A stretch of 46,615 bases of DNA from Oscillospiraceae bacterium (GCA_015067255.1 SVMS01000014.1:1-46615), one strand, 5' to 3'; shown: positions 18,483 through 45,788, counted from the first letter of the stretch. Numbers and translations: made by a program. Notes: generated by a model not told the origin, from the letters alone.

Positions 18483-21400
18483 TCACTCTCCGAAGCGGAT
18501 GTTTTTAACGTAATCTCTTATTGATACCATATCCGAAATATTATCTTCTGTCAACAGATTTGAGTTTTTTCTGAAATTGTTGAAAACAACAGTATCTATA
18601 CAGCTCTGCTCAGAGGTAGCGCTGAGAATTGATTTCAATTCTCCCGTACCGTTATAGCTTATATCTTCAAAAACAATATTTCTGATTGCTCCGCCCTCTG
18701 ACCAGAAAGGATTATCGGAGCTTTCGTTACGTATAAAGAAAAGAGAAGCTTTTTCAGGTGCTCTGAAGCTGTCTATTCTTATATCTCTAACGGTGATATT
18801 GCTTATTTTGTTGCCTGCTGTAGACCAGAACCAACAAACACCTGTAAATTTACTTAAATTCCAAACGCCCTGCTGATTTAAGATGTCATTGTTTTCAAAG
18901 GTGATGTTTGAAATATCGGCATATGTGTTTTCCCCAAGGCCCAACAAAAAGATTCTTGCACCGTCGCCCCAGAAAACACTGTTTTTTATAATGTTGTTGC
19001 TTGAATATCCGTAGTGATAAATAACGAACTGGTCATCACAGCTTCTTACAAAACAGTTATCCACTGTACTGTCAGAGCTTGCGCTGAGATGTATTCCGTC
19101 TGCATTGGTTACGCTTCCGAAGCAGTTGACATTATTTATCTGTATATTGTTGCTGTAATTGGCTACAATGCTCCACATAGGCGAGTCTATAACAGTTATA
19201 CCGTCTATAGCGGAATTTTGCGAGGAGGTAATCCATATAGCTCCTGTTCTGCCCTCCGCATACTGCATAGAATGTTCATTTTTACTGCAATCGAGTATTC
19301 CCCGTCCAAAAATCTTTACGCCGTTTATCTCGTCTGCAGAAATGGAGCCGTATACATACGATCCCGAAGCAAGATATACTTTTACATTATCCTTTGAAAT
19401 GAAGAAGGACTCAGCAGAATGCCAATTACCGTACATCTGCACTGAAGCATAGACTGTATTTTCATCGCCGTCAGTAAGTTTTGCAAAGGTTTTTAAAGCT
19501 CCTGCACATGCTTTTCCCAACGCTACGTTTTGACCTGTATATCTCTCAAAAAGCTTTAATTCCTTAACGTAATTTGCAAATATCAGATTCGTATAATTGC
19601 TCATCTGACCTTCGCCGTTATTTCCGCAAAGCTTTATTCTTACACGGGAGGTACTGACAGCAGAGAAGCTTGCTCTTATTGTACCTGTGGATGAATTTTC
19701 TTTACCGTCATATATAAGTCTATATTGCTGTGTTGCTTCATCCTTTGCATAAAGCTCAAATTTCTGAGGCCCTGTCATAAAATAGTTTTCTTGCAAAGCT
19801 CCCTGTACCAATTCGAAGCTGTTAATAGTCTTTGTCTGTCCGAAATCTATATCTGCCCACATTCCCTGAGGAAGATTATGAACTCCCGCTTTAAAATAAT
19901 AGGTATCCTTATTTTCAGGAAGCTCTAACGGAATTTCATCTCCCGCCTCTATTACATATACATTTTCGTCATTTTCCGACGGAGCGTCAGTCTCAGGATT
20001 TCCCGTCATAATATGCAGACAAAGGTCATACCAATTATCGTTAATTCTCAAAACAAGCTTTTGTGTGCCGTCACTTGTCTGTGTCAAAGGGAAAATAAGA
20101 GAATTATCATTTATCTGCATAGCATTTATGCCGTCAGAGTAAGGGCGGATATCATAGGAGTTGATTTTTCCGCCGTTGTATACTACCTTCATATCAACAG
20201 TACCGCTGAAATCAAAATTAACCATCGAGGCATTTACCCTCTCCGAAAGCGTACTGTTTTCATCGCCCTCCTGAGTTCCCACCGGAGTATTATAGACAAA
20301 CAGTTCTTGCCACTTGGGACTTCCCGGCTGTCTTACATATACCGAATAGGAAGTATTTTTTTCAATTTCATCGGGGGCATTTGATGCGTTTATATTTTGA
20401 TTTTCTTTAAGCAATAAATCTTTAAGGCTGAGTAAATTTGTTATATTTACTCTTCCGTCAGCGGAAATTGCCATTTTCTGCGCCTCTGAAAGCACAGAAT
20501 TATAAAGGAAATGCTTTCTTAAGGATATCGCATCGAGCACATTAACTTTTCCGTCTTCACTGACGTCACCGTATACCGATAAAGTATACTGAGTATTTAT
20601 ATTATCATATTTAATGGATAGCTTGCTTCCCGTTGCAACCTTGCCGTCATTTTGCAAGTCTGACACAATTTCGGCAAAAGCAGAACAGCTTATTCCCCTG
20701 ATAAACTCCTCTGATGTTATTCCGTTAGGAATATTATAAATAACATCATCTTTTAATTTAAGGGTGCTTATATCTGCAGGTAATGTACCCGAATAGGTTT
20801 TAGACCAGCCCTCTTCTGGTATATAAGAAAATCCGCAAGGAGAAAGATACGCTTCCCCAAAGCTGATAGGTCCACGGATTTCAAAGCTGTTGGCAACCTC
20901 AGGGTCAAATTTTGTTATGCCCTGTTTATCTACCCAAATCTGAAGTTTTCCTTCACCGCTTTCATTTTTTGGGAAAATATGTACCATAGCCGCATAATCA
21001 TGGCCTGCTAAGGCACAAAGACTTTCAATACTTTGTCCGTTTATGTATATACGCTGACGGATAGCATCTTTGTAATCTGAGCTTGCCTGAATATTATTGA
21101 GCTCTGTTTTGGTTACGTATTTGCTAAGCTCAAGGGTGATAAGATAATAGCTTCCGCTTTCGCTTATTTCGGGTGCCGAAAGCAAAGCTGCTACTGAATT
21201 ACCTGCTGTGCTGTTAATCCAATTTTCCTCATAACAGTCATAAATAAAAGCAGCTTTTGAAAAGTTTTTTTTGTTTAAAGTTATGTCATTTTTAATTTCA
21301 AAAACATTATAAGAAGATTTATCAAGCCCAGCTAAATTGACTTTATCCAGCCATATTTCCATAAGACCTTGTCTGTTTTCGTCTGCGGGATGCAGACTTA

Positions 21401-21695
21401 CCATAGCCGCATAATCATGACCTGCTTGTGTGCATAGCTCACCTATACTTTTCCCGTTAATATAAAGTGAGCTTTTAATTGTACTCGCAAAGTCAGCACT
21501 TGCCTGCAAGTTCATCATAAGGCTGTCTGTAACAGGCACATCTGTCTGAAACTGTAATATGTAATATCCGCCGTTTTCTACAATTGTGCTTTTGTCGGCA
21601 AGAAAATTAATATATGTCTCCTGTGCAGAAATGTGTGCCTGACAGGGTAAAAGCAAAAGTATTAAAACTAAAAATAAACAAATATATCTTTTCAT
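18483..21695 (-). CDS. Secreted modular GH28-like beta-helix enzyme with internal dockerin
   Basis: The protein has 1070 residues and a signal peptide (1 to about 24). Two copies of the island's repeated module lie at about 28-160 and 170-295. An internal type I dockerin occupies about 376-430: the first loop is good (DVSEDGKVNVLDAISL), but the second lacks its first acidic residue (ISADGRVNITN). Residues about 575-715 resemble a discoidin-like sandwich. The C-terminal part (about 760-1070) is a right-handed beta-helix with TNADGIHLS and RSCDDQF near 863-889, the layout of GH28 polygalacturonase-type sites. Linkage specificity is unknown. Its ATG overlaps the stop of the upstream gene by four bases. 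Confidence 0.75.
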   Translation of the reverse strand: MKRYICLFLVLILLLLPCQAHISAQETYINFLADKSTIVENGGYYILQFQTDVPVTDSLMMNLQASADFASTIKSSLYINGKSIGELCTQAGHDYAAMVSLHPADENRQGLMEIWLDKVNLAGLDKSSYNVFEIKNDITLNKKNFSKAAFIYDCYEENWINSTAGNSVAALLSAPEISESGSYYLITLELSKYVTKTELNNIQASSDYKDAIRQRIYINGQSIESLCALAGHDYAAMVHIFPKNESGEGKLQIWVDKQGITKFDPEVANSFEIRGPISFGEAYLSPCGFSYIPEEGWSKTYSGTLPADISTLKLKDDVIYNIPNGITSEEFIRGISCSAFAEIVSDLQNDGKVATGSKLSIKYDNINTQYTLSVYGDVSEDGKVNVLDAISLRKHFLYNSVLSEAQKMAISADGRVNITNLLSLKDLLLKENQNINASNAPDEIEKNTSYSVYVRQPGSPKWQELFVYNTPVGTQEGDENSTLSERVNASMVNFDFSGTVDMKVVYNGGKINSYDIRPYSDGINAMQINDNSLIFPLTQTSDGTQKLVLRINDNWYDLCLHIMTGNPETDAPSENDENVYVIEAGDEIPLELPENKDTYYFKAGVHNLPQGMWADIDFGQTKTINSFELVQGALQENYFMTGPQKFELYAKDEATQQYRLIYDGKENSSTGTIRASFSAVSTSRVRIKLCGNNGEGQMSNYTNLIFANYVKELKLFERYTGQNVALGKACAGALKTFAKLTDGDENTVYASVQMYGNWHSAESFFISKDNVKVYLASGSYVYGSISADEINGVKIFGRGILDCSKNEHSMQYAEGRTGAIWITSSQNSAIDGITVIDSPMWSIVANYSNNIQINNVNCFGSVTNADGIHLSASSDSTVDNCFVRSCDDQFVIYHYGYSSNNIIKNSVFWGDGARIFLLGLGENTYADISNITFENNDILNQQGVWNLSKFTGVCWFWSTAGNKISNITVRDIRIDSFRAPEKASLFFIRNESSDNPFWSEGGAIRNIVFEDISYNGTGELKSILSATSEQSCIDTVVFNNFRKNSNLLTEDNISDMVSIRDYVKNIRFGE

Positions 21696-29087: not shown

Positions 29088-29933
29088 TTATTTTTTCTTT
29101 TGAATTGACTTCATAACAAAAAATGTTACTACAGAAGCTACCGCCGCAGCCGCAAGTGCAATTACTATAGTTGCCCATAGAGGCACGCAAACGCCATGGT
29201 CTTTATCTTCGTCAGCATCGTTATCTGTTACCTGAGATGAAGATGACTGATTTTCAGAGGGCTCCTGTGAAGATGTGGGCTGAGAAGGCTCTGAAGAAGG
29301 CTCTGAAGATGGCTCCGAAGAAGGTGTTGAAGACACCTGTGAAGAAGATGAAGGCTGTTCAGAGGATGCAGGAGAATCTGCTGTTTTATATTTTAAAACA
29401 TTTCCGCTGAAATCAATATTGTCAAAATTATCTACCCTAACCCATTTTTTTGTTTCAGGTGTATAGAGATATTTATTTGCCGCAATTGTATCTCCGTCGG
29501 AAGTAAGAAGTCCTTCTTTGAACTCAATGGTATGCATTTCATCTCTTTCAAACTGTAAATAGGGCTTTGAACGGTCAAACCAAAGAGAGAGTTTACTCTG
29601 AGTAGGAGTATCTCCTGCAAGGAAATGCACCATTACCTGATATTCGTCTCCGCCGCTTTTCTTAATCCAATCCATTACGCTTTTACCGTCAAGATAAAGA
29701 AATTTTCTAAAAGAAGAAGCACACTCATTGTCAAGGCCCTGAAGGTTACTTAAAAGCGTGGTTTTTTTGTTAATAAGTATAGTTACAAAATGACAGCTTG
29801 CATCCTGAGAAACCTCTATTCCGTTTCCGCCGTTCATTATTTCAAAGCTTGCTGTTACAGTTTCTGCGGATACTGCTGTTGCAAAAGAAATTCCAAGCAC
29901 TAAGCAAAGAATAAGAGATATTATTTTCTTCAT
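29088..29933 (-). CDS. Membrane-anchored protein with one copy of the island's repeated module
   Basis: The product has 281 residues. A signal peptide (1 to about 23, ending VSA) is followed by one diverged copy of the module (about 25-165: SNLQGLDNECASSFRKFLYLDG region, YQVMVHF, LSLWFD). A flexible linker very rich in Ser, Pro and Glu (about 184-235) and an acidic stretch lead to a C-terminal membrane helix (about 251-273) and a lysine tail. The layout suggests a binding domain held away from the membrane through the cell wall. The ATG at 29933 is chosen because AAAGGA lies nine bases upstream; an ATG at 29942 touches that site. I do not recognise a named family. Confidence 0.72.
   Translation of the reverse strand: MKKIISLILCLVLGISFATAVSAETVTASFEIMNGGNGIEVSQDASCHFVTILINKKTTLLSNLQGLDNECASSFRKFLYLDGKSVMDWIKKSGGDEYQVMVHFLAGDTPTQSKLSLWFDRSKPYLQFERDEMHTIEFKEGLLTSDGDTIAANKYLYTPETKKWVRVDNFDNIDFSGNVLKYKTADSPASSEQPSSSSQVSSTPSSEPSSEPSSEPSQPTSSQEPSENQSSSSQVTDNDADEDKDHGVCVPLWATIVIALAAAAVASVVTFFVMKSIQKKK
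29287..29334. repeat. 12-bp tandem repeat coding for the Ser/Pro/Glu linker
   Basis: Four consecutive 12-base units (two GGCTCTGAAGAA-type, then GGCTCCGAAGAA and a diverged unit) lie in frame in the membrane-anchored protein gene and encode repeated SSEP on the minus strand. Copy number could vary by slippage and so change linker length. Confidence 0.7.
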
Positions 29934-29934
29934 A

Positions 29935-31869
29935 TTAACCATTCCTTTTTTGTTTTATCATTATTGTTGTAAAAAGTATGAAAATTGCCGATGCAAGTAT
30001 GCTTAAATAAATAATATTATCAGAGGTTTCGGGATTTGAAACTACTCCCGCACCCCATTCCCGAGAAGAAGCTGAATAATTAAAGAGCTGTGCTTCAAAG
30101 GTATATCCGTTAACAGTAAGCTGAGGCTTTATTTCGATAGAGCAATTATTATCAGCTGTCCAAGAAAAATCGTTTGAAGCAGAAACCCAGATATCAAAGC
30201 TGTCGCCGTTGGCAGAAAAATGTATCATAGCTTTATAGTTGTCCCCTGAGTCTGTGCAAAGCTTGTCAATTGATTTTCCGTTAAGTATAATATTTTTTCT
30301 GATGCTGTTTTTAAGCTCCTCAAGCTCACTCTTTGTGCTTGCCTGAATATTTCCTTCAACTGTGCCTATAGATTTTGAAAGAGTAACAGTTATTTTCTTG
30401 AAGTTGGGATCATCTGTATCTGTAAATTTACTTACCGATGTAATCTTTACGCTCTTATCTTCAACATAATCATTGGAAGCGTCTTCGTTTTCTGCTGTAA
30501 GCTCTGCTGTCCAAAGCTTTGTTTCGGGGTCAAAGGTGCATTTGAAAGGCTTTATTTTTATTCCGTTTGCCGTTACGCCTGATACTACTCTGAAAACTGT
30601 CTTTTTATCAAGACCTGCGTTAAAAGGATTGCTTGCTCCCATCCATACTGACAGAGCAGAGCCGCCCTTTATAATGTGAAGCATAGCGACGTATTGGTCG
30701 CCTGTGTCCTCCATTGCTTCTCCTACGCTTTTTCCGTTTATAAACATCTTATCTTTATAATTTACATATTCGCTGTCAGTTGAATTTTGAAGCTGATAAA
30801 GCTCAACATTTGCGCTGTTATCAAAATCTATTTCAAAGTATATATGGCTTTCAGAAACCATAAACTCAGAAACTGAAACAGGGCTCATATCTGTTACTAC
30901 AGGAGGAGGAATTGTGCCGCCACCGTTGTTGTCATCGTAATCATCGTCGTCATCATCATTTTCGTCATAAGGCTCAACAGCCCATGTAGCACTCTGTGCG
31001 GTAAAGGTACATTTTACGGGATTTACCTTATATCCGTTTATAACAAGTCCCTCTTTAACTATAACAACTGCATCTGCAGTAGTTGAAAGGGAGACTTTAT
31101 TTGTCAGTCCTGTCCATATGGCAATATGTGCACCGTTATTTTCGGTGTGAATCATAACCTCATAATCTCCGCCCTCTGTCAGTGCCTGAGAAACACTTTT
31201 ACCGTTTATTATAATACAGCTTCCTACAAGAGCTTTAAGAGTTGCATCGGAGGATGCTTGCATATGAGCGTAATCTGCCTGTACGTTTTTGTCAAAATAC
31301 ATCTGGAAAAAGATATAATTGGGATCGGAAGCCACATCAATAGGCTTTAATCCCGTTATATTTACTGTGTCTGTGGGCACTTGAGAAGGCTGTCCTGCTT
31401 TTGCCCATAGAGTTGTTGAAGCTGTATAATTATATTTTACTGCTCCAATATTATATCCGCCAAGCTCAAGACCTTCTTTTATTTCTATATTGGCATCTGA
31501 AGAAATAGTTATATTAAATACATTCTGAAGGTCTATCCATATACAAATTCCGTTTTGGTTTATACTTACCATTGCGGCATAATCGTGTCCTGCAAGAGTA
31601 CAGCCCTCTCCGACTGCTTTTCCGTTGATATATATTTTTTCTCTTACAGCTGTTTTAATTGCCGCATCGGCAGATGCCTGCAAATTTACAACCTGATCAG
31701 TTGCAAGAGCCTTATCAGTATCAATATCAAGGATATAATAATTTCCCTGTACCCTGCTTCTGACACCTGTTACGTTTGCGGTTTCAGTAACAGCAAATAC
31801 CGATATAAAGGTTACTGCCTGAATAAGCACTGCAACAATAAGTACCAATGAAATAAATGTCTTTTTCAT
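29935..31869 (-). CDS. Membrane-anchored protein with four copies of the repeated module
   Basis: The 644-residue product has an N-terminal signal peptide (about 1-26) and four copies of the island module at about 30-155, 168-296, 330-454 and 472-604. Each copy contains the anchors NLQAS or similar, INGKS, a Gly-Asp-Tyr segment with AM(I/V/L)H or S, and a final tryptophan. An Asp-rich linker (about 303-318) splits the copies two and two. A C-terminal membrane helix (about 620-637) and basic tail end the protein. No catalytic motif is seen; a glycan-binding or scaffolding surface role is inferred. The ATG at 31869 has GGAGAAG upstream; an in-frame TTG at 31893 lacks one. The following gene starts two bases after its stop. 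Confidence 0.75.
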   Translation of the reverse strand: MKKTFISLVLIVAVLIQAVTFISVFAVTETANVTGVRSRVQGNYYILDIDTDKALATDQVVNLQASADAAIKTAVREKIYINGKAVGEGCTLAGHDYAAMVSINQNGICIWIDLQNVFNITISSDANIEIKEGLELGGYNIGAVKYNYTASTTLWAKAGQPSQVPTDTVNITGLKPIDVASDPNYIFFQMYFDKNVQADYAHMQASSDATLKALVGSCIIINGKSVSQALTEGGDYEVMIHTENNGAHIAIWTGLTNKVSLSTTADAVVIVKEGLVINGYKVNPVKCTFTAQSATWAVEPYDENDDDDDDYDDNNGGGTIPPPVVTDMSPVSVSEFMVSESHIYFEIDFDNSANVELYQLQNSTDSEYVNYKDKMFINGKSVGEAMEDTGDQYVAMLHIIKGGSALSVWMGASNPFNAGLDKKTVFRVVSGVTANGIKIKPFKCTFDPETKLWTAELTAENEDASNDYVEDKSVKITSVSKFTDTDDPNFKKITVTLSKSIGTVEGNIQASTKSELEELKNSIRKNIILNGKSIDKLCTDSGDNYKAMIHFSANGDSFDIWVSASNDFSWTADNNCSIEIKPQLTVNGYTFEAQLFNYSASSREWGAGVVSNPETSDNIIYLSILASAIFILFTTIMIKQKRNG

Positions 31870-31947
31870 AGTTCTTCTCCATTCTGCACTCAAGCTTTTT
31901 TGTAGAATTTACCGTATTTAAAGCGGCAACGGTAATGCCGTTTTTGA

Positions 31948-33810: not shown

Positions 33811-35983
33811 AAGCAACGCCCCCTTTTAAAAAGCAATAGCTTTCAGCCTTTACGGTGTTTCCGTTTACTGAAATATCCTTATCTGAATAGTTTACTATAA
33901 CGCTGTAGCCGTTTTGGTAAACTGTTTCAAAAACGTCCTTTTCAAGCTCTCTGTGAGCTGTCATATACTGACCTGCGACAGCTTTATAAAAGCTTCTTGT
34001 ACTGTTATAAAGAGTATGTATTCTCTCTTCCCACACAGCACTGTTACAGGAATAATAGCCTTTTTCAGATGTTTTATGTATTATATCCGTATTTCGCACA
34101 ATAAGAGAAAAGTCGGGCGCTGCACCGTACTCAATACTCTTGAGAATTGCAAGCTCAGTATCTCCTTCAAGGTTTACCGAATTTGAAGCATAGTCGCATA
34201 TACCGTGAATAACCATCTGATAAAAAGGAATATCTTTTGTAAGCATATCATACTGACTTGATTTCATAGGAACAGAAGAAATCATATTGGCAGTGCTTAA
34301 AGAGTATATAAAGGCATCTTTAAAATAAATACCCTCTGAAGCATTTGATATTTTTTCAAAGGCTGTTTGTGTGATATCCAACATAGCCTGTCTGTCAAAA
34401 ATATTGTTTTTATCATAATCGGAATACAAATTGGCACCGCTGTTATAAATTCCGAAAGCACCGTTTATTTTATTAACCGATTTTGCTATTGTATCTGATA
34501 TTTTTTCTAAATTCAAAGCCGATATAAGATACCATTTTTTAAAGCTGTGATTTTTATCGAAGGTATTGAGATAATAGCTGAACTGCTCTGCTCTTGCTCC
34601 GCTGACGCTTCGGCTTACTCCCGTTATAGAGGAAATTCCGTTTCCGCCCTTATATACCTTTTGTATATCAGCAAGCAAATAAATGTTTTTATTTTTTTCA
34701 ATAAGAGTATTAATCTTTTTTACGTTTCCTATTTTTTTATTTATGGAAAGGTTTGTAGGTATTTTACCGTAAAGACCGCCCTTGAAAGCTCCAAGCATCG
34801 ACACAGAAACGCTGCCGTTACCGTTTTGTTCAAATTTTTCAAGAGCCTTTGAAACATCATCAAGGGTTGTCAGCGTAACCTGTCCCGTATAGGGAATACC
34901 TAAAAAGCTTTTTTTGATTTCGGCAGAAGCAAGATAAGAAAGATTTAAAGCTATACCCTGTGATTTTTTATCAGATAAATTATATTTGTCAATTAAATAA
35001 TTTCTGTAAAGCTCAGCCATTCCCGAATAATCGGCATTTTCTCCCTCAAGAAAATAATAGCCGACTCTGAATTTTTCTTTGCTGTAAGGCTTTTTGGGGA
35101 CAACGTATAAAACTCTGTCCTCGTTACTCATTTCCGCCAGATGAGTGGTATCAAGAGCGCGATAGTTAAAGGTTACTCCTGCGCTGTTATAACTTGTTTT
35201 TATTCCTGCAAGGTCTGCATTGATTGTGCAGACAGCCGCACCGTCTTCAACTATTGCAAACATTGCCGATTTTTCGCGTTTAATTGCGAATATCGGCATA
35301 TATACCTTTTCTTCAACTGTATCCTTAAACTTTTTATAAAGTATGGGATCCTCCCCGTAAACTTCTTTTGAATATCCGAATTTATATGAGGTCATAGAAT
35401 TAAATTCTGCAATTGCGCCGCTTCCGTCGGGAACTAATAAATATCCCTTTTCATCTGCGTATGTTGCTCCGAAATATGGCAAAAGGGAAATTGAAATTAT
35501 TTTATTCTCCCCTGTTTCTTTTATCTCGCTTGCGATAATATCTACGCAAAGTCTGTCCTCTTCAAGAGTAATTTCCACGGGTATTACAAAATTTTCTTCT
35601 TTGAAATTGTATTCAAAACGAACACCATTGCCATTTTTAGTGCCGGAAAGGGAGCTTTTATTTATAACTGCAACCTTTGAGTTTTTAACAAAGGTATTCT
35701 TTTTTGCATCTATGTATTCTACTGTTATCTGAGACATCATATTGGTTCTTTCCATACCCACGGCATTGTCATCGGGCTTTTCAAGAAACGGCTGTGAGCA
35801 ATAGATATCTCCGGAAGCTTTTTCGGTTACAAAGAAGTCTCCGTTTGAAAGGTTTGCATTGAGAATAAGCTTCGAATTTTGGGCAATAACCTGCGTTTCC
35901 TGTGGCTGAGCCTCAGCGCAGACACAAAAGCCGCAACAAAAAACAGTTATAGCGGTAATAAGCACAGCAACAATCCTTTTCAC
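33800..35983 (-). CDS. Secreted DUF5696-domain protein
   Basis: This 727-residue protein has a signal peptide (about 1-24) and starts with GTG, preceded by AAGGAGGGG six bases upstream. The N-terminal half is beta-rich with the block PYFGATYADEKGYLLVPDGSG near residues 195-215, which I associate with DUF5696. The C-terminal half is alpha/beta (LADIQKVYKGG, KWYLISALNL, GIYFKDAFIYS), suggestive of a barrel of glycosidase type, but I cannot point to catalytic residues. DUF5696 proteins tend to occur with sugar ABC transporters and Yip1-family proteins in Gram-positive genomes, and that arrangement is seen here. Role in uptake or in glycan cleavage is unresolved. Confidence 0.8.
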   Translation of the reverse strand: MKRIVAVLITAITVFCCGFCVCAEAQPQETQVIAQNSKLILNANLSNGDFFVTEKASGDIYCSQPFLEKPDDNAVGMERTNMMSQITVEYIDAKKNTFVKNSKVAVINKSSLSGTKNGNGVRFEYNFKEENFVIPVEITLEEDRLCVDIIASEIKETGENKIISISLLPYFGATYADEKGYLLVPDGSGAIAEFNSMTSYKFGYSKEVYGEDPILYKKFKDTVEEKVYMPIFAIKREKSAMFAIVEDGAAVCTINADLAGIKTSYNSAGVTFNYRALDTTHLAEMSNEDRVLYVVPKKPYSKEKFRVGYYFLEGENADYSGMAELYRNYLIDKYNLSDKKSQGIALNLSYLASAEIKKSFLGIPYTGQVTLTTLDDVSKALEKFEQNGNGSVSVSMLGAFKGGLYGKIPTNLSINKKIGNVKKINTLIEKNKNIYLLADIQKVYKGGNGISSITGVSRSVSGARAEQFSYYLNTFDKNHSFKKWYLISALNLEKISDTIAKSVNKINGAFGIYNSGANLYSDYDKNNIFDRQAMLDITQTAFEKISNASEGIYFKDAFIYSLSTANMISSVPMKSSQYDMLTKDIPFYQMVIHGICDYASNSVNLEGDTELAILKSIEYGAAPDFSLIVRNTDIIHKTSEKGYYSCNSAVWEERIHTLYNSTRSFYKAVAGQYMTAHRELEKDVFETVYQNGYSVIVNYSDKDISVNGNTVKAESYCFLKGGVAYEN

Positions 35984-35999
35984 GTTATTCCCCTCCTTC

Positions 36000-36637
36000 T
36001 TACATTCTGAAAACTATCTCGTTATATATGTTCATTATAAATATCAAAAACTGTTGTGTCATACTGAATACTATGACGCACAAAAAGGCTATCAATGCCA
36101 TAAATACAATACATACAACAAGAGAAAATACGGTTTTTTTCATAGTAAACCTATGAACCTCTTTCATTCCTATCATAAGCAAAAGCACCGACCATATAAT
36201 TCCTATTGTTGATATTATTTCTATAAAGGCTTGCTCTCTCAATACCAAAAGATTTGTCAGCACCGTATTTATAAAGGAAGCTATGATATACGGTGTCAGA
36301 GAAAAGCCTGTAACAGTGAAATTTCAATAAAAGTAGCTTCTCCCTCTGTCAAAGCACAAAAAGCCCAGTTGCTTACAATAAAGCAAGCGTACAGCGCAGT
36401 AATTATCGCCGCTTCAAGCAAAAGATTTACGTTTTCGATTTTTGCGGTGTTAAAGAGAAAGCCGTTAAGCACAAGAGTTAATATTCTTGCAATAAATACA
36501 AGGGCAAGCTGACAAAATATCTGCCATATCGCACCCGCCTTTTTATATTTTATCTGTTCTGAACAATCAAAGGGGGCCGTTATGTATTTAATGGGGTTTA
36601 AAAATTTTCTGTCAATCCATTGTTTCATCTTTTCCAC
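36000..36637 (-). pseudogene. Yip1-family membrane protein, frameshifted
   Basis: The gene begins with ATG at 36637 and reads MEKMKQWIDRKFLNPIKYITAPFD, with membrane helices, until ALTEGEATFIEIS. It then hits TGA about nine codons later. Shifting frame at 36315-36325 continues the protein without a gap as TVTGFSLTPYIIASFINTVL and on to the stop at 36000, giving about 212 residues and five predicted helices, as expected for Yip1-family proteins. One base is missing relative to an intact frame. Yip1-like membrane proteins occur beside DUF5696 and sugar transporters. The lesion may be a real mutation, a phase-variable or programmed shift, or an assembly error. The start overlaps the upstream gene by 26 bases. 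Confidence 0.82.
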
Positions 36638-38072
36638 CCCTCTTTTTTATATTATTAAGCTTAACTATTAGCAGTACAAACAAAACGACTGCGCCCAAAG
36701 CAAAAAAGATGAAATTCTTTCTCATAAATTCAATTCTGAAAGCGGAATATGCCATATCGTATTTTTCTCTGTCCTCAGACAAGGAAAAATATCTCATAGC
36801 AGTACGGTATTCTTCCTGCTTGTAATATCCCATACCTATACCCGATAAAGCCGCCTGATAATTGGCATTTTTCTCGTATATTTTCTGCCATATGGGCATA
36901 GCCTGCACATACTCTCCCTTGCTGTCGAGTATAAAAGCTTCTTTTATGCTGTTTGTATATTCGGTAGGAGAAAGCACAAATACGGCATTTTTTGTATTGT
37001 CAAGAACATACACCTTTTCACCGTATACAGATAAAGCACACGGATTTCTGAAGGTGCCCTTTTGTTCTCCTATACCTCCGAATACAGCCACAAGCACGCT
37101 GTCCTGAGAATATTGGAATATACGGCCTCTTGTAACATCAAGAGCATAAATAAAGCCGTCATTATCAACAGCTATATCCTGAAAAGAGCTGTCAAGAGTA
37201 GTTCCCGCATCTGATATAATACGAAGGTCGCCGTAATCTCCGTTTCCAATTTTACGTTCGGGAAAATCGGAATTATATTTCAAAATATTATTGCCGTAGG
37301 GATTGAATTTTTTTATTTCCTGCATAGAATTTTCAGTGCTTGCGGTAACGGTATATATAAAATCGTTATTGTCCACACAAACTCCTGTAAATTCAACGGG
37401 AATAGTCTGTTTCATATTGGCTTGCTGAGTTTCTGTGAAAATGTTTTTCCAGAACTGTGAAGCTATAACGGAAAGAGAAGCCTGAATTTTATTTGAGCCG
37501 AAATAGCCTATCATTTTTCCAAATTGGTCAACAGTGATAAGTCCGTTGTAGTCGCCCTTACACACAATCTGTATTATACCCGTAGAGTCTACACTCAGGC
37601 GCTGAGGCTTGAATTTAAAATCGTCCCCTACTATCTGAGAAGGCACAAAATCAAGCTTTTCAAAAATACAGGTATTTTTCTCAGCGACATATATTTCCCC
37701 TTTGTCGCTTGCACAAAGGAATATTTTTTCATCAGTTACAAAAATACCGGTACAATCAGCAAAAGACATATTCTGTGTAGGCAGTATTTCCTTGACAAAA
37801 TTATCACTGCTGTCAAATACAGCCAATCTGTTGTTCTCGCAGTCTATAACATAAAGGTTTCCGTCTTTATCGTGAGCCATATCTGAGGGAGCAGAAAGCT
37901 CTTTTCCCGTTTTTTCTTTGACATCAAGCTTTTTTTCATAGATATAGGTTTGGGGAGAAGGTACTGCTTCTCCTGTTACAGAATAGGTATAATCGTTATA
38001 GTTGGAGACTGCATATGCGCTCATTGGCATTACAAAAAGCAGTATTGCAACTATTATAAATATTCTTTTCAT
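36612..38072 (-). CDS. Secreted membrane-anchored NHL beta-propeller protein with TPR segment
   Basis: The product has 486 residues. A signal peptide (about 1-22) is followed by NHL-type beta-propeller repeats to about residue 370 (MAHDKDGNLYVIDCENNRLAVFD, IAVDNDGFIYALDVTRGRIFQY, SVYGEKVYVLDNTKNAVFV). Next come one or two TPR-like helical hairpins (GEYVQAMPIWQKIYEKN, MGYYKQEEYRTAMRYF). It ends with a membrane helix near 460-477 and a charged tail. The propeller should lie outside the cell. Such proteins typically mediate binding; the partner is probably one of the adjacent importer proteins. The ATG at 38072 has AAAGGGG upstream. An in-frame alternative at 38156 would prepend 28 residues ahead of the signal peptide and is rejected. 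Confidence 0.8.
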   Translation of the reverse strand: MKRIFIIVAILLFVMPMSAYAVSNYNDYTYSVTGEAVPSPQTYIYEKKLDVKEKTGKELSAPSDMAHDKDGNLYVIDCENNRLAVFDSSDNFVKEILPTQNMSFADCTGIFVTDEKIFLCASDKGEIYVAEKNTCIFEKLDFVPSQIVGDDFKFKPQRLSVDSTGIIQIVCKGDYNGLITVDQFGKMIGYFGSNKIQASLSVIASQFWKNIFTETQQANMKQTIPVEFTGVCVDNNDFIYTVTASTENSMQEIKKFNPYGNNILKYNSDFPERKIGNGDYGDLRIISDAGTTLDSSFQDIAVDNDGFIYALDVTRGRIFQYSQDSVLVAVFGGIGEQKGTFRNPCALSVYGEKVYVLDNTKNAVFVLSPTEYTNSIKEAFILDSKGEYVQAMPIWQKIYEKNANYQAALSGIGMGYYKQEEYRTAMRYFSLSEDREKYDMAYSAFRIEFMRKNFIFFALGAVVLFVLLIVKLNNIKKRGGKDETMD

Positions 38073-38091
38073 ATCGCAGTCCCCTTTCTTT

Positions 38092-38952
38092 TTATTCTTT
38101 AATTCCTGAATTTGCCATAGTTTCAATAATTTTTCGCTGAAACAGTACAAAGACAAGCACAGGCGGAATTATCATAAGCAACGTTCCCGCTGCACCTGCA
38201 CCTGCACGGGACATTCCCGAGGATATTATCTGTGTCAGCATAGCAGGCAAAAGCTTTTTTGACTCTGTAAAAATCATTCCGTTACCATTGCTGTTCCAAA
38301 GTGACTGAAAAGTAAAAATAACAACCGTTATCCACGCAGGCTTTACGGCAGGTGTAACTATGCCAAAGCATATTCGCATCTCTCCCGCCCCGTCTATCCT
38401 TGCCGATTCAATAACGGCGTTAGGCACTGTGGACATAAACTGTCTTAAAAGAAATATACCCAAGGTTGAAGAAAAGACAGGAGCAAGAATTGCCATAGGA
38501 GTATCAAGCCAGCCTAATTTTGCAGTTATAAGATATCTGGGAACGGCAAGCACATTTCCTGTATATAAAAGCGAAAGAACTATTATTTTGTTATATAAAT
38601 TTTTGCCGAGAAAATCGTGCTTTGAAAGCACATAAGCGCCCATAATACTGATAAAAACAACCGTTGTAGTTCCTGCAAAGGCTACAAAAACCGTATTATA
38701 CACATATTTTGGAAAAGGTACTCTGAGATTTGCCGCTATGTCAAATAAATCAAGAAAATTATCGGCTGTGGGATTGATAGCATAAAACTTAGGCGGGAAA
38801 ATGAAAAATTCCTCAACCGGCTTAATTGAGCTTGCAACGGTGTAAACAAGGGGAATTATCATAAATACTCCCAAAACAAACAAAAACATTATCGTTATAA
38901 TATTTCCGCCCAAGGAGCGATTAAGCTTCTTTTTCTTCGAAATTCTGTTCAT
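38092..38952 (-). CDS. Carbohydrate ABC transporter permease, MalG type (importer 1)
   Basis: A membrane protein of about 286 residues with six predicted helices. The EAA loop is present but diverged (IESARIDGAGEMRICFGIVTPAVKPA near 185-210). It pairs with the MalF-type protein upstream and the giant binding protein. AGGAAGG at the end of the upstream gene can serve the ATG at 38952 (11 bases away) or GTG at 38958 (five bases away); a GTG at 38964 overlaps the site. Start is therefore uncertain by a few codons. No ATPase is encoded nearby. Confidence 0.92.
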   Translation of the reverse strand: MNRISKKKKLNRSLGGNIITIMFLFVLGVFMIIPLVYTVASSIKPVEEFFIFPPKFYAINPTADNFLDLFDIAANLRVPFPKYVYNTVFVAFAGTTTVVFISIMGAYVLSKHDFLGKNLYNKIIVLSLLYTGNVLAVPRYLITAKLGWLDTPMAILAPVFSSTLGIFLLRQFMSTVPNAVIESARIDGAGEMRICFGIVTPAVKPAWITVVIFTFQSLWNSNGNGMIFTESKKLLPAMLTQIISSGMSRAGAGAAGTLLMIIPPVLVFVLFQRKIIETMANSGIKE

Positions 38953-38960
38953 CTTCACCG

Positions 38961-39866
38961 TCACCTTCCTATACGGTTTATTCCTGTGTCTATAATCTTG
39001 TGTATCAGATACATAAACACAAACAATAAAAGAGTTATCGCACAGGCATATCCCATTTCATACCTTATGTTAGCATAGTCATAGGCGTGCAGGGTAACGG
39101 TAAGACCTGCGTTGTTTATACTGGGATATCCGCAAAGCTGAAGGCTTATATCTCCTGCGGAAAAAGAGGTAGTTATCTGAGTTATTGCACCGAAAAGAAG
39201 CATAGGCTTCATCTGAGGCAAAGTCACATACCAAAGCTCTTGCCAACGGTTATGAATACCGTCTATTGCGCCGGCTTCGTAAAGGTCGGGGTTTATCATC
39301 TGAAAGCCTGCTACAAAAGCAAGAAAGCCTGTACCTAAGCTGAGCCACAGCTGAACTAAAATTAAAATACCCAATATCATTTCAGGGTCTTTAAGGAAAA
39401 GCATAGGCTCATTTATTATTCCGTATTTCATAAGCAAGCCGTTTACAATTCCGTATTGGTCCGAGCTGAGTATAATCTGCCATACAACGTACAGCTGACC
39501 TGAAATTGAAGGCGCATAAAAAACGAAGGTGATAAAAGACCTGAGTCCTTTGCTCAAATCGTTTATAAGCCACGCTATAAAAAAGCACAGCACGTAGCTT
39601 AAAGGTCCTGTAATAACGGCAAAAAGCAAAGTGTTCTGTATAGCCGTAATAAACTCATTGTCAGACAAAAGCAAGGATGCAAAATTATCAAGACCAACAA
39701 AAACAGGAGTATTAAAATAATCGTAGGATGTAAAAGAAAGTATAACCGATATTATAATCGGAAAAAGCATAAACAGAAAAAAGAATAAGGAAAATGGCAA
39801 AAGCATAAGATAACTTACTTTTGACTTAGCTATTCTTTTTCTTAAAGAAATCTCCTGTCCTTTCAT
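38961..39866 (-). CDS. Sugar ABC transporter permease, MalF type (importer 1)
   Basis: A 301-residue membrane protein with six predicted helices and an EAA loop (YEAGAIDGIHNRWQELWYVTLPQMKP near 205-232). It forms the pore with the MalG-type subunit encoded next and receives substrate from the fused binding protein encoded just upstream, whose stop codon is six bases before this ATG. AGGAAGGTAATTATT precedes the ATG; the first part is the ribosome site. Confidence 0.93.
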   Translation of the reverse strand: MKGQEISLRKRIAKSKVSYLMLLPFSLFFFLFMLFPIIISVILSFTSYDYFNTPVFVGLDNFASLLLSDNEFITAIQNTLLFAVITGPLSYVLCFFIAWLINDLSKGLRSFITFVFYAPSISGQLYVVWQIILSSDQYGIVNGLLMKYGIINEPMLFLKDPEMILGILILVQLWLSLGTGFLAFVAGFQMINPDLYEAGAIDGIHNRWQELWYVTLPQMKPMLLFGAITQITTSFSAGDISLQLCGYPSINNAGLTVTLHAYDYANIRYEMGYACAITLLLFVFMYLIHKIIDTGINRIGR

Positions 39867-39871
39867 AATAA

Positions 39872-42712
39872 TTACCTTCCTATAATCTCAAGCTGAGCGC
39901 TTTTTCTCTTAAGCTCAGTGTCTATTATTTCTCCGTACTTTTCAAGCACGGTTCTCGCCGTATCATTTGACAGTATAACATCGGATATAGCGTTTGTCAG
40001 ATATCTGCTTACAAAATAATTTCCCGGCACCTGTTCAAAGGTGCTGACGTTTTCCCACTGTTCCTTTATAACCTTTACTGCACTTGAAGGCCACGGGATT
40101 TTTTCAAATGCGTTTTTATTTGCAGTTAAGTATCTTCCCGAAGGACCGAGAATTGTTTCAACCTCCATACCGTAACGGTATTGAGCGTCCTCACTTGTCC
40201 ACCATTTCATAAACTCCCAAGCCAGCTCGTAGTTTTTACAGGACTTGAACATTATTGAAGATACTCCCGTAAACTCACTTGTACGGTTAAGACCGTTTTC
40301 ATCGGGAGTGCCGGGAATTAACGAAATTGACCATTTGCCCGAAATTTCCGGTGCTGCAAAGGAAAGATAGTTATAGGTTGAAAGAGGCGCTATACCTATG
40401 GGCATTTCTCCTGTTCTGAAACGGTTGGGAAAATCGTAATACACAGGCAATCCAAACTCGGTATATAAATCGGTAAGCTGTTTAAAAGCATCTATTGCTT
40501 CGGTGCTATTAAGATTGTTGCCTGTAAGATTGCTGTTATAAAGCTCCACTTTGTTTTGCATCAGGAAAGTATACAGCATTTTTGGCGGCTCTGTATTTAT
40601 CGTACCTGCAACGGTCTGAGTAATGCTTGGAATACCCACGTCCATATTGTTTCTTGCAAGAATCGGTACTATATCCTTAAGCTCTTTCCATGTTTCAGGA
40701 ACTTTAAGCGAAAGCTCCGAAAAAATATCGGTACGGTAAAACATTACGTTAAATTCCTGAACCTCAGGCAGAGCGTAATATTTTTCCTTATAGCCATAAG
40801 GCTTAAGGGCGCTATCATAAAAGTTCTTCTTTGTAAATGAATCAAAGTCCTCAAAATCGCTCAAGGGGACAAGAATTCCTCTTGCCGCATAGTCAACAGG
40901 GGCGCTCATTCCGATATTCAAAGCAATGTCGGGCCCGTTTCCTGCCACAACTGCTTCCACAAGATTTCCCTGTACTAATTTCAAATTTACACTTGCGTTA
41001 TTGTCGGTTTTAAAATATTTTACAATAAGATTGCTTAGGCTTTGAGCCTGGTCACGTCCCGCAGAAAGCCAGACATCTATTTTTTCTGTACCTTCAGCGC
41101 CGCCGATACTGTCGTAATCGACAAAAAACGAGTAAATAAAGCTCTTAAAAAGGCTCACTGCAGACTCAAAAAATCCTGCGTTTGCCTTAAGATTTTTTTG
41201 AAGATTATTTCCTAAAGCAATATAATCCACATATATCGGATAATTGCTTGCCGAAAGAAGCCAAGCAGAAAATGCGCTTATATTGGATTTAAGATTTGAA
41301 ACTCTCGAAGCAATACTTCTCGGCTTTTCAATAAAGCTTTTTATCTGCTCTGAAAGAGTCATTACAGAAGAAGCCTGAGCCGCGGTTGAGTGGGACATCT
41401 CCTCCATGTTGTCAAGTCCCTTTTCCAAGCCTTGCATTATATTTGTAAGGCGCTCAATAAGATTAGGGACGGATTTTTCTAAGTTGTAATCACGGTAAAG
41501 GTCGGGAGATGTGCCAGTTATCATAATGATATCAGTATAAATGTCTGTTACATCAGTCAATAGCTTTTCAAAGTCAGCTATTATATCCTTCATTTCACCT
41601 GTTGTAACTTCCATTCTCAAGGCATGCTTTCCCTTTTCCAGATAGAAAAGATAAGGAGTGCCGTTTTCATCGGAAAGTGTTTCGATTTTCCAGGAACGGT
41701 CATACCCGAAGCCATAGCCTTCCATTTCCTTGAACGGTATTTCCCCGTCAATATAAATTGTACGGTAGCAGTTCATTCCGTTAAGCTCGTTCTGACGAAG
41801 CCTTAAAGCTATTTCATAAAGTCCGCTTGTTTCTACGTCGATATTCCATTCTATCCATTGAGAAGGAGAAGACCAGTTTGTTCCGCCTATCATATTAAGT
41901 CTTACTCTTTTTTCGTCAAAGGGATAAGTTGCACAGCTTGACTTATCAGCCAACGGATAAAGTAAAGCGTCTGACTTAAGAGCTTCCTTTTCTCCCTGTA
42001 TTATAAGAGGCTCGCCTTCATAACGTTCATTTTGATAAGAGGAAATATATTGACTGTAACCAACAACCTTACCGTCAGTTGCCACTTCTATTTGTTCTAT
42101 ACAAACTCCGCCGTTTACAGCGACAATATCCAACGAATGTATGCCTTGTGTAAAAAAGAACCGATAATGGTCGCTCATTCCGTTCGATTGGTTATAAAGA
42201 GCAACTGTGCTGTACTTAGCTATTTGCTCCTGCTCAGGACGAAGCTCGTTTTGATTGCGGTCTGTTTCAAAAACATCATTTTTACTTGTATATGTACGCT
42301 TTAAAGAAATATCGTTTGCTTCAAAAAAAGGAACCTGCCCATCTATTTTAACGCAAAGCTCTATTTCACGCTCTGTTTCAACTACTGCGCAATAGGAAAG
42401 ATAAATACAGTAATAGCCCTCCTGCTCTATATCAACCTTTACCGAGACACTATCACCTGCATTTTTGAGAATTACAACCTTTTCTCTGTCTGCATAGCTT
42501 TCAAAGATTGTATCTTCGCTTATGTCAACCTGAGCCTTTGCTTCAAACTCTTTAATCTCTCCGTTATCCTCAAGATATTTTCCGTATGTATAATTATAGC
42601 CCGAGATATCGGTATTCTGTTGAACACTGTTATTTTCAGCCTGAACTGCAAAAACAAAATTAAACAAAAGGACAAAGAACAGTAAAATTGCCGATATTTT
42701 ACTTTTCAACAT
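39872..42712 (-). CDS. Giant secreted solute-binding protein fused to carbohydrate-binding-like modules
   Basis: The product has 946 residues. It has an N-terminal signal sequence ending in AVQAE with no lipobox cysteine. Two beta-sandwich-like regions follow (about 30-215 and 230-385; the second has WIEWNIDVETSGLYEIALRLR and YLEKGKHALRMEV, typical of carbohydrate-binding folds). A helical segment (about 390-530) leads to a family 1 extracellular solute-binding domain (about 540-940: ALNIGMSAPVDYAARG, YALPEVQEFNVMFYRTD, SSIMFKSCKNYELAWEFMKWW). Ordinary sugar-binding proteins are about 430 residues. The ATG at 42712 has AGGAGG eight bases upstream; a GTG at 42721 overlaps that site. It is the first gene of the island's leftward run. 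Confidence 0.85.
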   Translation of the reverse strand: MLKSKISAILLFFVLLFNFVFAVQAENNSVQQNTDISGYNYTYGKYLEDNGEIKEFEAKAQVDISEDTIFESYADREKVVILKNAGDSVSVKVDIEQEGYYCIYLSYCAVVETEREIELCVKIDGQVPFFEANDISLKRTYTSKNDVFETDRNQNELRPEQEQIAKYSTVALYNQSNGMSDHYRFFFTQGIHSLDIVAVNGGVCIEQIEVATDGKVVGYSQYISSYQNERYEGEPLIIQGEKEALKSDALLYPLADKSSCATYPFDEKRVRLNMIGGTNWSSPSQWIEWNIDVETSGLYEIALRLRQNELNGMNCYRTIYIDGEIPFKEMEGYGFGYDRSWKIETLSDENGTPYLFYLEKGKHALRMEVTTGEMKDIIADFEKLLTDVTDIYTDIIMITGTSPDLYRDYNLEKSVPNLIERLTNIMQGLEKGLDNMEEMSHSTAAQASSVMTLSEQIKSFIEKPRSIASRVSNLKSNISAFSAWLLSASNYPIYVDYIALGNNLQKNLKANAGFFESAVSLFKSFIYSFFVDYDSIGGAEGTEKIDVWLSAGRDQAQSLSNLIVKYFKTDNNASVNLKLVQGNLVEAVVAGNGPDIALNIGMSAPVDYAARGILVPLSDFEDFDSFTKKNFYDSALKPYGYKEKYYALPEVQEFNVMFYRTDIFSELSLKVPETWKELKDIVPILARNNMDVGIPSITQTVAGTINTEPPKMLYTFLMQNKVELYNSNLTGNNLNSTEAIDAFKQLTDLYTEFGLPVYYDFPNRFRTGEMPIGIAPLSTYNYLSFAAPEISGKWSISLIPGTPDENGLNRTSEFTGVSSIMFKSCKNYELAWEFMKWWTSEDAQYRYGMEVETILGPSGRYLTANKNAFEKIPWPSSAVKVIKEQWENVSTFEQVPGNYFVSRYLTNAISDVILSNDTARTVLEKYGEIIDTELKRKSAQLEIIGR

Positions 42713-42840
42713 TTCCGACACCTCCTATAAGACAAAAAATACTACGATTTTTAAAATTTTAGAAATTACACTGATGGTATTCCCCTATACTACAAAAATA
42801 ATATTATAAAAACAAGCTTTTTTCAATGGTAATACAAGTT

Positions 42841-43883: not shown

Positions 43884-45788
43884 ATGAAATCCAAAAAAAT
43901 ACGTTTTCTTTCAGCTTTAGTCAGCGGCGTGCTTTTATTGTCATGTGTATTTGCCTTGGCAGCTTCTCCCGTTTCTGCAGAAGCTTCCGTTGCTAAAGTA
44001 ATAAGCCGTGTAACAGGCGAGTGGAGTATTGACTTTGTTCTTGATAAAAATATTGAATTTACAGGAGCAAATATCCATACTGATTACGCTGAGCTTAACG
44101 CAACTCCCGATTACGCCCTTATCGAAGAGGTAGGAGGCAAAATCCTTATAAACGGAATTCCTCTTAAGTATGCTAACTCTCCATATCTTCCCAGAGTTTC
44201 GGTGCAGTACATCGAAGGAAGCAATCAGAGCAATATTCATTTTGACCTTTATAAGCAGGACGGTGTTGCTCAATCCTATGACGGAAAAAATTATACAATC
44301 GAATTTCTCCCCGGTTTAGTTTTAGGTAACAGTGAAATTGAAGCCGGTATCCACACTCTTACGGACGGAAACTGGACTTTTACAAAAACTGCAACTGTAA
44401 GCCATGTTGAAACTGTTTCCATAACAGAAAACGAAATAACCTTTAAGGCATATTTTAGTGAAAATATTGGAGTTAATCAAATAAATGCGCAGGCAAGCGA
44501 TACTGCTTATCCTGAGCTCAGAACAGACATTCTTTCAAAATTCTATTTTCAAAATGAGAGCGTTCAGGCTCTTCAGACTGCCGCAGGTCACGAGTATCAG
44601 CCTGTTATCAGCTTTGTAAGCTTTGAGGGCGAAGCTACCTATATGCAAATAATACTTGCAACCTCAGGTCCCGCTGCTTTCTCCGCTGACAGCAATTATA
44701 TGTTCGCAATAGAAGAAGGCTTTACTGTAAACGGCTATAATATTCTTCCCGCAAGATTTGAATTTTCCAAAAACACTCAGGAATGGTCTGTTCCTGTATT
44801 GAAAACAGGCGATATTTCCAGCACCGAATATGAAATTCATATTATGCTTAATAAAAATGTAGGTCTTGACCTTGTCGGTGTTCATACTCCCTATACAGAT
44901 GTAAACACCAATGCAGACCCCTCATACGAGCTTGTAAATATGCTTCAGAAATATGTATATGTAAACGGCACTCCCATAGGAACCGCATCTCATCGCTGGT
45001 TACCCCGTATAAGCATTGTTTCTGCAGGAAGCACAAACAGCAGACTTACATTCTCCGTTTATTCAGAGGGTGGAAACAGTATGTCCTTTGACCCTGCAGG
45101 CAATTATTCAATTGAATTTAAAGAGGGAATAATTTTAAACGGTTATCATCTTGCTCCTGCTGAGTACACAATGACCGCAGGTGTATGGACCTCCAACGTT
45201 GAAGAGGAGCCCGTTGAGCTTATCCCCGTTAGCCTCACAGGCGCATCTAACGCTATGTCAGACGATACAAATTATTTCATTCTCCACATCGGTCTTTCTC
45301 AGGCTATTGTAGATTCAACTCAAGTGAATTTACAGGCAAGCCCCGATATTTCCGTAAAAAATCAAGTACGTGAAGCATTTGTCTTCAACGGTATGAATCT
45401 GGGAGACAAAATTGCTGAAACAGGAAACGAATACTGTGCTATGATAAGCGTCAGCGAAAACGGCTTTGCAGTTTGGATTGATGCCGTAAACGCATTTAAT
45501 ATGTCTGCATCAAACGATATGTCCTTTGAAATCACCAAAAACATAGCTATCAACGGCTATGAAATCCCTGCAGGAAAATATGTATATTCAGTTGCTGCAG
45601 GCGGTTGGACTATGTTCTGCGATGCTAACTTAGACAATACAGTAAACGTACTTGACCTTATCAGCGCAAGAAACGTGCTTATAGGCAAAGAAGCTTCCGC
45701 TTTATCGGCTCAGGCTATGGACTATGACCGTAACGGCACAAGTGATTTGCTTGACCTTCTTAACATTAAAGCTTTACTTCTTGCATAA
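43884..45788 (+). CDS. Secreted dockerin protein with four copies of the repeated module
   Basis: The product has 634 residues. A signal peptide (1 to about 32, ending SPVSA) is followed by four copies of the island module at about 35-165, 175-302, 310-435 and 446-575. Copies 1 and 3 form one subtype (PRVSVQYI / PRISIVSA in place of the AM motif) and copies 2 and 4 another. Copy 4 has the full NLQASPD, FVFNG and YCAMISV anchors. The protein ends in a type I dockerin (577-634) with two calcium loops, DANLDNTVNVLDLISARNVL and DYDRNGTSDLLDLLNIKALL. There is no catalytic motif. AAAGGAGG precedes the ATG at 43884. It is divergent from the regulator. Confidence 0.8.
   Translation: MKSKKIRFLSALVSGVLLLSCVFALAASPVSAEASVAKVISRVTGEWSIDFVLDKNIEFTGANIHTDYAELNATPDYALIEEVGGKILINGIPLKYANSPYLPRVSVQYIEGSNQSNIHFDLYKQDGVAQSYDGKNYTIEFLPGLVLGNSEIEAGIHTLTDGNWTFTKTATVSHVETVSITENEITFKAYFSENIGVNQINAQASDTAYPELRTDILSKFYFQNESVQALQTAAGHEYQPVISFVSFEGEATYMQIILATSGPAAFSADSNYMFAIEEGFTVNGYNILPARFEFSKNTQEWSVPVLKTGDISSTEYEIHIMLNKNVGLDLVGVHTPYTDVNTNADPSYELVNMLQKYVYVNGTPIGTASHRWLPRISIVSAGSTNSRLTFSVYSEGGNSMSFDPAGNYSIEFKEGIILNGYHLAPAEYTMTAGVWTSNVEEEPVELIPVSLTGASNAMSDDTNYFILHIGLSQAIVDSTQVNLQASPDISVKNQVREAFVFNGMNLGDKIAETGNEYCAMISVSENGFAVWIDAVNAFNMSASNDMSFEITKNIAINGYEIPAGKYVYSVAAGGWTMFCDANLDNTVNVLDLISARNVLIGKEASALSAQAMDYDRNGTSDLLDLLNIKALLLA

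What the first reader, a model, noticed from the sequence alone, without database searches (positions are those of the whole stretch)
18483..45788. An unrecognised extracellular module repeated 11 times in four proteins of one island
The sequence shows a unit of about 120-130 residues with ordered anchors: a beta strand ending in (N)(L/I/M)QAS-x-D, a stretch with K/R, then I-(I/Y)-(I/L)-N-G-K-(S/A), then a Cys or Leu and G-x-(D/E)-Y-x-x-M-(I/V)-(H/S), a short I-x-I-W strand, an E-I/E-F-K-E-G-L strand, N-G-Y, and a terminal W. I count two copies in the GH28-like enzyme (18483-21695), one in 29088-29933, four in 29935-31869 and four in 43884-45788. I do not recognise it as a named CBM or Ig-like family. 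All hosts are secreted, and copies combine with an enzyme, dockerins or membrane anchors, so a glycan-binding or assembly role is the simplest inference.
Basis: partly seen in the sequence, partly recalled or inferred. Interest (0 to 1): 0.88.

Follow-up and report, generated by a model that had tools for sequence, protein, structure and literature searches.

The report
New locus-private surface binding module
A gut-type bacterium carries an undescribed protein module 11 times in one sugar-digestion gene cluster, on its cell surface and on its dockerin-tagged (cellulosome-type) proteins, probably to hold the same plant sugar chain at both places.

Summary
Eleven homologous copies of a ~130-residue module lie in four secreted proteins. 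They are the only copies in the 1.84-Mb genome, and I found no relative in about 1,200 genomes searched from the same order, class or phylum. No Pfam, NCBIfam or PHROGs model, and no solved chain, matches by sequence. AlphaFold2 predicts an Ig/FnIII-like beta-sandwich with a helical insert (pLDDT 96.8). Two P0001 copies form a diverged subfamily.

The genome has about 21 dockerins, 5 cohesins and 4 sortases, so it is a cellulosome-type organism. The locus resembles a rhamnogalacturonan/pectin utilisation cluster. The wall- or membrane-anchored P0004 and P0003 share the module with dockerin-bearing P0001 and GH28 enzyme P0002.

Three other loci in this genome have the same layout, each with a different, unrelated module. 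One is LamG-lectin-like, one CBM4/9-like, one unknown. The first two are confined to their own locus, apart from an apparent contig break.

By analogy with Ruminococcus bromii Sas20/Sca5, I infer a new carbohydrate-binding-module-like family that binds one locus-specific glycan both at the cell surface and in the enzyme complex. Glycan binding is untested. Module homology and architecture are shown; ligand and mechanism are inferred.

The parts
18483..21695 (-). P0002: signal peptide + 2 modules + type I dockerin + F5/8C-like + GH28 catalytic domain
21216..21629 (-). module GH28_m1 (P0002 residues 23-160)
20793..21200 (-). module GH28_m2 (P0002 residues 166-301)
20409..20573 (-). dockerin type I of P0002
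   Evidence: 33 bits, over cut-off
29088..29942 (-). P0003: signal peptide + 1 module + Ser/Pro linker + C-terminal transmembrane anchor
29427..29864 (-). module TM1_m1 (P0003 residues 27-172)
29935..31893 (-). P0004: signal peptide + 4 modules + C-terminal NPETSD-hydrophobic-KQKRNG tail (sortase-like or membrane anchor); likely ATG start at 31869
31399..31788 (-). module TM4_m1 (P0004 residues 36-165)
30976..31374 (-). module TM4_m2 (P0004 residues 174-306)
30493..30897 (-). module TM4_m3 (P0004 residues 333-467)
30037..30465 (-). module TM4_m4 (P0004 residues 477-619)
43884..45788 (+). P0001: signal peptide + 4 modules + C-terminal dockerin; no catalytic domain found
43977..44393 (+). module DOC4_m1 (P0001 residues 32-170), diverged subfamily
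44394..44792 (+). module DOC4_m2 (P0001 residues 171-303)
44793..45200 (+). module DOC4_m3 (P0001 residues 304-439), diverged subfamily
45207..45617 (+). module DOC4_m4 (P0001 residues 442-578)
45621..45782 (+). dockerin of P0001 (22.1 bits, just under the Pfam cut-off of 22.9; two D-x-N-x-D-type loops)
39872..42721 (-). solute-binding protein with CBM35-like N-terminus; context gene, start of the transport cassette
16421..18478 (-). GH106-type alpha-L-rhamnosidase; context gene at the end of the operon

Best explanation
The unit is a new family of extracellular Ig/FnIII-like modules that most likely acts as a carbohydrate-binding module for the glycan handled by this locus, probably a rhamnogalacturonan/pectin-type chain. 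Shown: 11 homologous copies confined to one locus; two in a dockerin-bearing GH28 enzyme, four in a dockerin-bearing protein without an enzyme, one in a membrane-anchored protein and four in a wall- or membrane-anchored protein; cohesins, dockerins and sortases in the same genome; three other loci with the same layout but a different module. Inferred: the anchored copies hold the polysaccharide on the cell next to the ABC transporter, while the dockerin-borne copies hold the same polysaccharide on the cohesin-bound enzyme complex, so that cell, substrate and enzyme are bridged and released sugars are captured.
For: Eleven homologous copies, only in this locus. Confident beta-sandwich. Fused to a GH28 enzyme with a dockerin. 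The locus also holds a GH106-like rhamnosidase, ABC transporters, solute-binding proteins and an AraC regulator. Cohesins, dockerins and sortases in the genome. In locus C6 the anchored protein and a dockerin protein share a CBM4/9-like module (3 and 5 copies, E about 1e-80); in C30 the anchored protein, a dockerin protein and a dockerin-beta-helix enzyme share a LamG-like module (E about 1e-36); in C1 an unknown module is shared (E about 1e-11). The C6 family occurs only in its own locus; the C30 family occurs in C30 and at one place on C33 that looks like the other half of the same contig-split gene. P0004 copy 1 is 33-39% identical to the GH28 and P0001-m4 copies, against 27-38% to its own neighbours, as expected if anchored and dockerin-borne copies share a ligand. 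Published precedent: R. bromii Sas20 (dockerin) and Sca5 (sortase-anchored scaffoldin) share 81%-identical beta-sandwich X25 modules shown to bind starch (PMC9112005).
Against: No binding data. No match to any named CBM family. The CBM_4_9 and LamG assignments in the sister loci are weak or below Pfam cut-off. The most conserved positions (W128, Y121, G56, G67) may be structural; conservation of the helical insert over the rest is slight (circular-shift test 33 of 130), so no binding site can be claimed.
Confidence: 0.6

Rival explanations
1. The module is a protein-protein assembly module, a functional stand-in for cohesin or a homotypic clasp, that joins the anchored proteins to the dockerin-bearing ones.
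For: P0003 has the same plan as this genome's single-cohesin anchored proteins: one beta-sandwich, linker, transmembrane tail. The same module is on both potential partners. A private module per locus could also give private assembly.
Against: No Pfam cohesin match for any copy and no profile-profile match to the genome's own cohesins. The genome already has cohesins and dockerins for assembly, and both P0001 and P0002 carry dockerins. Sister loci use lectin/CBM-like modules in the same slot. The 14-39% identity among copies fits poorly with one conserved homotypic interface.
Confidence: 0.2
2. The module is a passive Ig-like spacer or stalk that projects anchors, dockerins and the enzyme.
For: Ig/FnIII-like sandwich fold; tandem arrays; strong divergence between copies.
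Against: Conserved polar loops (NLQAS, NGK, GHDYxAM) beyond a bare sandwich; P0001 is nothing but modules plus a dockerin, so as a spacer it would carry no cargo; the sister loci reuse a shared binding-type module in the same layout.
Confidence: 0.15
3. The copies are diverged members of a known Ig-like, FnIII or CBM family that sequence search cannot reach. This concerns ancestry and is compatible with the binding role.
For: Foldseek best hit is the FnIII-like domain of Clostridium perfringens SleM (5jip, E 1e-3, probability 1.0); VIA Z up to 6.2 to several Ig-like domains.
Against: No HMM match in Pfam or NCBIfam for any copy; TM-scores are only about 0.3-0.4; Z under 8 is in the range of common arrangements; the helical insert is not shared by the listed matches as far as the summaries show.
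Confidence: 0.25

Closest known systems
Ruminococcus bromii Sas20 / Sca5 X25 starch-binding modules (PMC9112005)
   Same: About 120-aa beta-sandwich module shared between a dockerin-bearing non-catalytic protein and a sortase-anchored protein; Sas20d1 likewise had no detectable relatives before it was shown to bind starch.
   Different: The sequence is unrelated as far as Pfam shows; here the anchored proteins carry no cohesin, the target is pectin-like by context, and several loci of one genome each have their own module.
Cohesin (PF00963)
   Same: Similar size, beta-sandwich, repeated, in an anchored protein of a dockerin-bearing organism.
   Different: No sequence or profile match; the predicted fold has a helical insert after strand 2; it also sits inside dockerin-bearing proteins.
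FnIII-like domain of SleM (PDB 5jip), FlaF and other Ig-like domains
   Same: General Ig/FnIII-like sandwich.
   Different: Low similarity (TM 0.38; Z 4-6); the two inserted helices and the QAS/NGK/GHDY loops belong to this module.
Laminin_G_3 and CBM_4_9-type modules of the sister loci C30 and C6
   Same: They occupy the same architectural slot in the same genome (anchored protein plus dockerin protein or enzyme).
   Different: Unrelated sequences; no profile hits between loci except in the dockerin region.

Membership tests
Carbohydrate-binding module (CBM), as a functional class | Discrete non-catalytic domain contiguous with a carbohydrate-active enzyme | tested here: met
   Two copies in the dockerin-bearing GH28 protein P0002; single copy folds as a domain at pLDDT 96.8
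Carbohydrate-binding module (CBM), as a functional class | Demonstrated carbohydrate-binding activity | not testable with these tools
   Needs a glycan array, affinity gel or ITC
Named CBM families held in Pfam | Profile match of single copies | tested here: not met
   All 11 copies scanned; no CBM family at E<=1. Families without a Pfam model, and CAZy/dbCAN, were not tested
Cohesin (PF00963) | Profile match to cohesin | tested here: not met
   No cohesin among Pfam hits of any copy; hhalign of the 11-copy profile against the genome's five cohesins finds nothing
Cohesin (PF00963) | Nine-stranded jelly-roll fold without a large insert | tested here: inconclusive
   Cohesins are not among the 50 listed PDB matches, which does not exclude them
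Cohesin (PF00963) | Binds dockerin | not testable with these tools
   Complex prediction and binding assay not available
Ig/FnIII-like superfamily fold | Greek-key beta-sandwich | tested here: inconclusive
   Matches are mostly Ig/FnIII-like domains, but weak (Foldseek E 1e-3 at best, VIA Z<=6.2)
R. bromii-type matched module pair (Sas20/Sca5 arrangement) | The same module on a dockerin-bearing protein and on a cell-anchored protein | tested here: met
   P0001/P0002 versus P0003/P0004
R. bromii-type matched module pair (Sas20/Sca5 arrangement) | Module is X25 | tested here: inconclusive
   No Pfam match; no X25 model was searched directly

The most novel reading that the evidence does not exclude
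This genome follows a general rule: each dockerin-carrying glycan locus has its own private binding-module family, displayed both on an anchored surface protein and on dockerin-borne proteins, so that each substrate is gripped at both ends by matched modules. The window's module is a previously unknown binding-module family that arose or was recruited for one such locus.
Probability: 0.55. Interest if true: 0.75.

Novelty: new variant of a known kind. Interest (0 to 1): 0.62.

Why it matters
If right, it adds an undescribed binding-module family, possibly for pectin/rhamnogalacturonan, and shows a design principle for Gram-positive glycan degradation: one private module family per substrate, displayed on both the cell surface and the enzyme complex. 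That gives a rule for finding further unknown binding modules without sequence similarity: look for modules shared only between the anchored and the dockerin-bearing proteins of one locus. The copies are small, predicted to fold well, and ready for glycan-array tests.

Tried and rejected
Weak profile hits in other genomes were read and rejected: L018 (antisense to a type I restriction gene; two stops), L019 (inside a glycosidase-like ORF, 17.6 bits), L071 (unrelated 616-aa protein, partial match). A conserved binding site inside the helical insert was tested and is not supported statistically. Cohesin and FnIII identities were considered; cohesins and CBMs do not appear among the listed PDB fold matches, which does not exclude them. 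PF22820, PF16283, PF16397 and similar weak Pfam hits are single-copy, below cut-off, and were dismissed. A tree inside the main group is unresolved because branches are long. A paper search for DUF5696 gave nothing.

Full report
OBSERVATION. Three are on the minus strand (18483-21695 = P0002; 29088-29942 = P0003; 29935-31893 = P0004, likely ATG start at 31869) and one on the plus strand (43884-45788 = P0001). I cut 11 units of 130-146 residues and compared them: GH28_m1-2 in P0002, TM1_m1 in P0003, TM4_m1-4 in P0004, DOC4_m1-4 in P0001. Pairwise identity is 14-39% and phmmer links them all. As a control against circularity I trained profiles on three proteins and scored the fourth: 10 of 11 copies are found at i-E 1e-5 to 1e-32, while the best of 1,000 shuffled sequences reaches only about 0.01-0.2. 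The exception, DOC4_m1, is tied in by DOC4_m3 (E 3e-22). DOC4_m1 and m3 form a separate subfamily (support 100/99) that lacks the second helix. The 11-copy profile finds exactly 11 places in the 1.84-Mb genome, all in this contig, even at E<=10.

FAMILY STATUS. No copy matches Pfam, NCBIfam or PHROGs convincingly, and the profile matches no solved chain (best E 0.42). Searches of 59 related genomes and samples of 391, 394 and 398 genomes from the same class, order and phylum give no believable match outside this genome; the samples overlap partly, so I put the number of distinct genomes at about 1,200. Three weak hits were read and are chance. Pattern scans of GTDB contigs and viral contigs and tblastn on plasmids and phages were negative. 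No other member of its taxonomic family appeared among the relatives offered, so close relatives that may carry the module are not represented.

FOLD. AlphaFold2 with the 11 copies gives TM4_m1 at mean pLDDT 96.8 and pTM 0.90: strands 6-14 and 17-24, helix 42-51, strand 52-54, helix 59-66, then strands 72-77, 80-85, 99-103, 112-114, 117-122 and 127-129. I read this as an Ig/FnIII-like sandwich with a helical insert holding the conserved NLQAS, YINGK and GHDYxAM stretches. The diverged DOC4_m3 gives pLDDT 74 with the same element order minus helix 2. Fold matches are weak and generic: SleM FnIII-like domain (Foldseek E 1e-3), VIA Z at most 6.2 to Ig-like domains. I claim neither a new fold nor a known family from this.

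HOST PROTEINS. P0002: signal peptide, two modules, type I dockerin, F5/8C-like domain, GH28. P0001: signal peptide, four modules, dockerin (22.1 bits, slightly under cut-off). P0003: signal peptide, one module, Ser/Pro linker, transmembrane tail. P0004: signal peptide, four modules, then NPETSD-hydrophobic-KQKRNG, which looks like a sortase-type signal (inference). Signal peptides and transmembrane tails were read by eye, not by a predictor. The genome holds about 21 dockerins, five cohesins (some in single-cohesin membrane-anchored proteins) and four sortases.

LOCUS. The minus-strand genes from about 39866 down to 16421 are mostly tightly packed, several overlapping. They encode two ABC permease pairs, a DUF5696 protein, P0004 and P0003 (overlapping), two GH42/GH14-like proteins, a solute-binding lipoprotein, an ADP-ribosylglycohydrolase-like protein, P0002 and a GH106-type rhamnosidase; an SBP with a CBM35-like start and an AraC regulator lie upstream. 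P0001 is divergent from the regulator and is followed by a strong terminator-like hairpin at 45825-45858. This fits a Gram-positive polysaccharide-utilisation locus as described for Roseburia (PMC5320581). The rhamnosidase and GH28 suggest rhamnogalacturonan/pectin (inference).

THE SLOT COMPARISON. The SBP of this locus has two paralogues in the genome (C1, C6), and I read those loci and the C30 dockerin locus. In C6 an anchored protein (tail VPDTSD-hydrophobic-RTAKGKK) carries three copies, and a dockerin protein five, of one ~190-aa module with weak CBM_4_9 similarity (E about 1e-80 between them). In C30 an anchored protein (tail NANTGD), a two-module dockerin protein and a module-dockerin-beta-helix enzyme share a LamG-like module. 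In C1 a membrane-anchored protein and two dockerin proteins share a third, unknown module (E about 1e-11). Cross-locus similarity is confined to the dockerin region, apart from a marginal N-terminal match. The C6 module occurs eight times, all in C6; the C30 module occurs in C30 and at one place on C33, apparently the other half of the same split gene; neither is found in 234 other genomes of the order. So the window's module is one instance of a repeated layout: one private module family per glycan locus, shared by the anchored and the dockerin-borne proteins. Where the module type can be recognised, it is a lectin- or CBM-like fold, although those assignments are weak.

MECHANISM. The best explanation is glycan binding at both places: anchored copies hold the substrate at the cell, dockerin-borne copies hold it in the complex. 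R. bromii offers a measured precedent: Sas20 (dockerin) and Sca5 (sortase-anchored scaffoldin) share X25 beta-sandwich modules that bind starch, and Sas20d1 was an orphan sequence until tested (PMC9112005). Anchored TM4_m1 is about as close to the GH28 copies and P0001 m4 (33-39%) as to its own neighbours (27-38%), which fits a shared ligand but does not prove it. Assembly (cohesin-like) and spacer roles remain possible; no cohesin relation was detected. I found no statistically clear binding site.

VERDICT. Observation confirmed. A new module family, most likely CBM-like, within a new variant of a known arrangement. Binding is untested.

Noticed in passing
G000:C6 (L086 11052-14492 and 16006-19671), G000:C30/C33 (L087 1-2409, 6223-9090, 9123-10694), G000:C1 (L069 807-4646, 4876-8934, 14718-18503): Three more loci of the same genome pair an anchored protein with dockerin proteins through a module not seen in the other loci (CBM4/9-like, LamG-like, unknown).
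   Followed up: yes
window 33800-42721; L085 66-9163; L086 1-7468: A cassette of SBP with CBM35-like start, two permeases, NHL/TPR membrane protein and DUF5696 protein occurs three times in the genome; a relative of the SBP is found in 123 of 245 sampled genomes of the order.
   Followed up: partly
G000:C33:17059-17937 and G000:C30:1-186: A LamG-like module appears split between C33 and the start of C30, suggesting the contigs are adjacent.
   Followed up: no
L051 1836-2879, L052 2779-4888, L053 2237-3328, L054 2064-3128: Cohesins in this genome sit singly, mostly in membrane-anchored proteins, some with a cadherin-like domain; no multi-cohesin scaffoldin was seen.
   Followed up: partly
L055, L057, L058, L059, L067: Several large BspA-type leucine-rich-repeat proteins end in dockerins, so dockerins here are not limited to enzymes.
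   Followed up: no
P0004 tail (window about 29938-30030), L086 about 11052-11150, L087 about 8990-9087: Possible unusual sortase-type motifs NPETSD, VPDTSD and NANTGD before a hydrophobic stretch and basic tail.
   Followed up: no
window 1056-2117: IS30-like transposase near the left contig end (by eye, not searched).
   Followed up: no
window 45825-45858: 15-pair terminator-like hairpin after P0001, symmetric so it could serve both strands.
   Followed up: no
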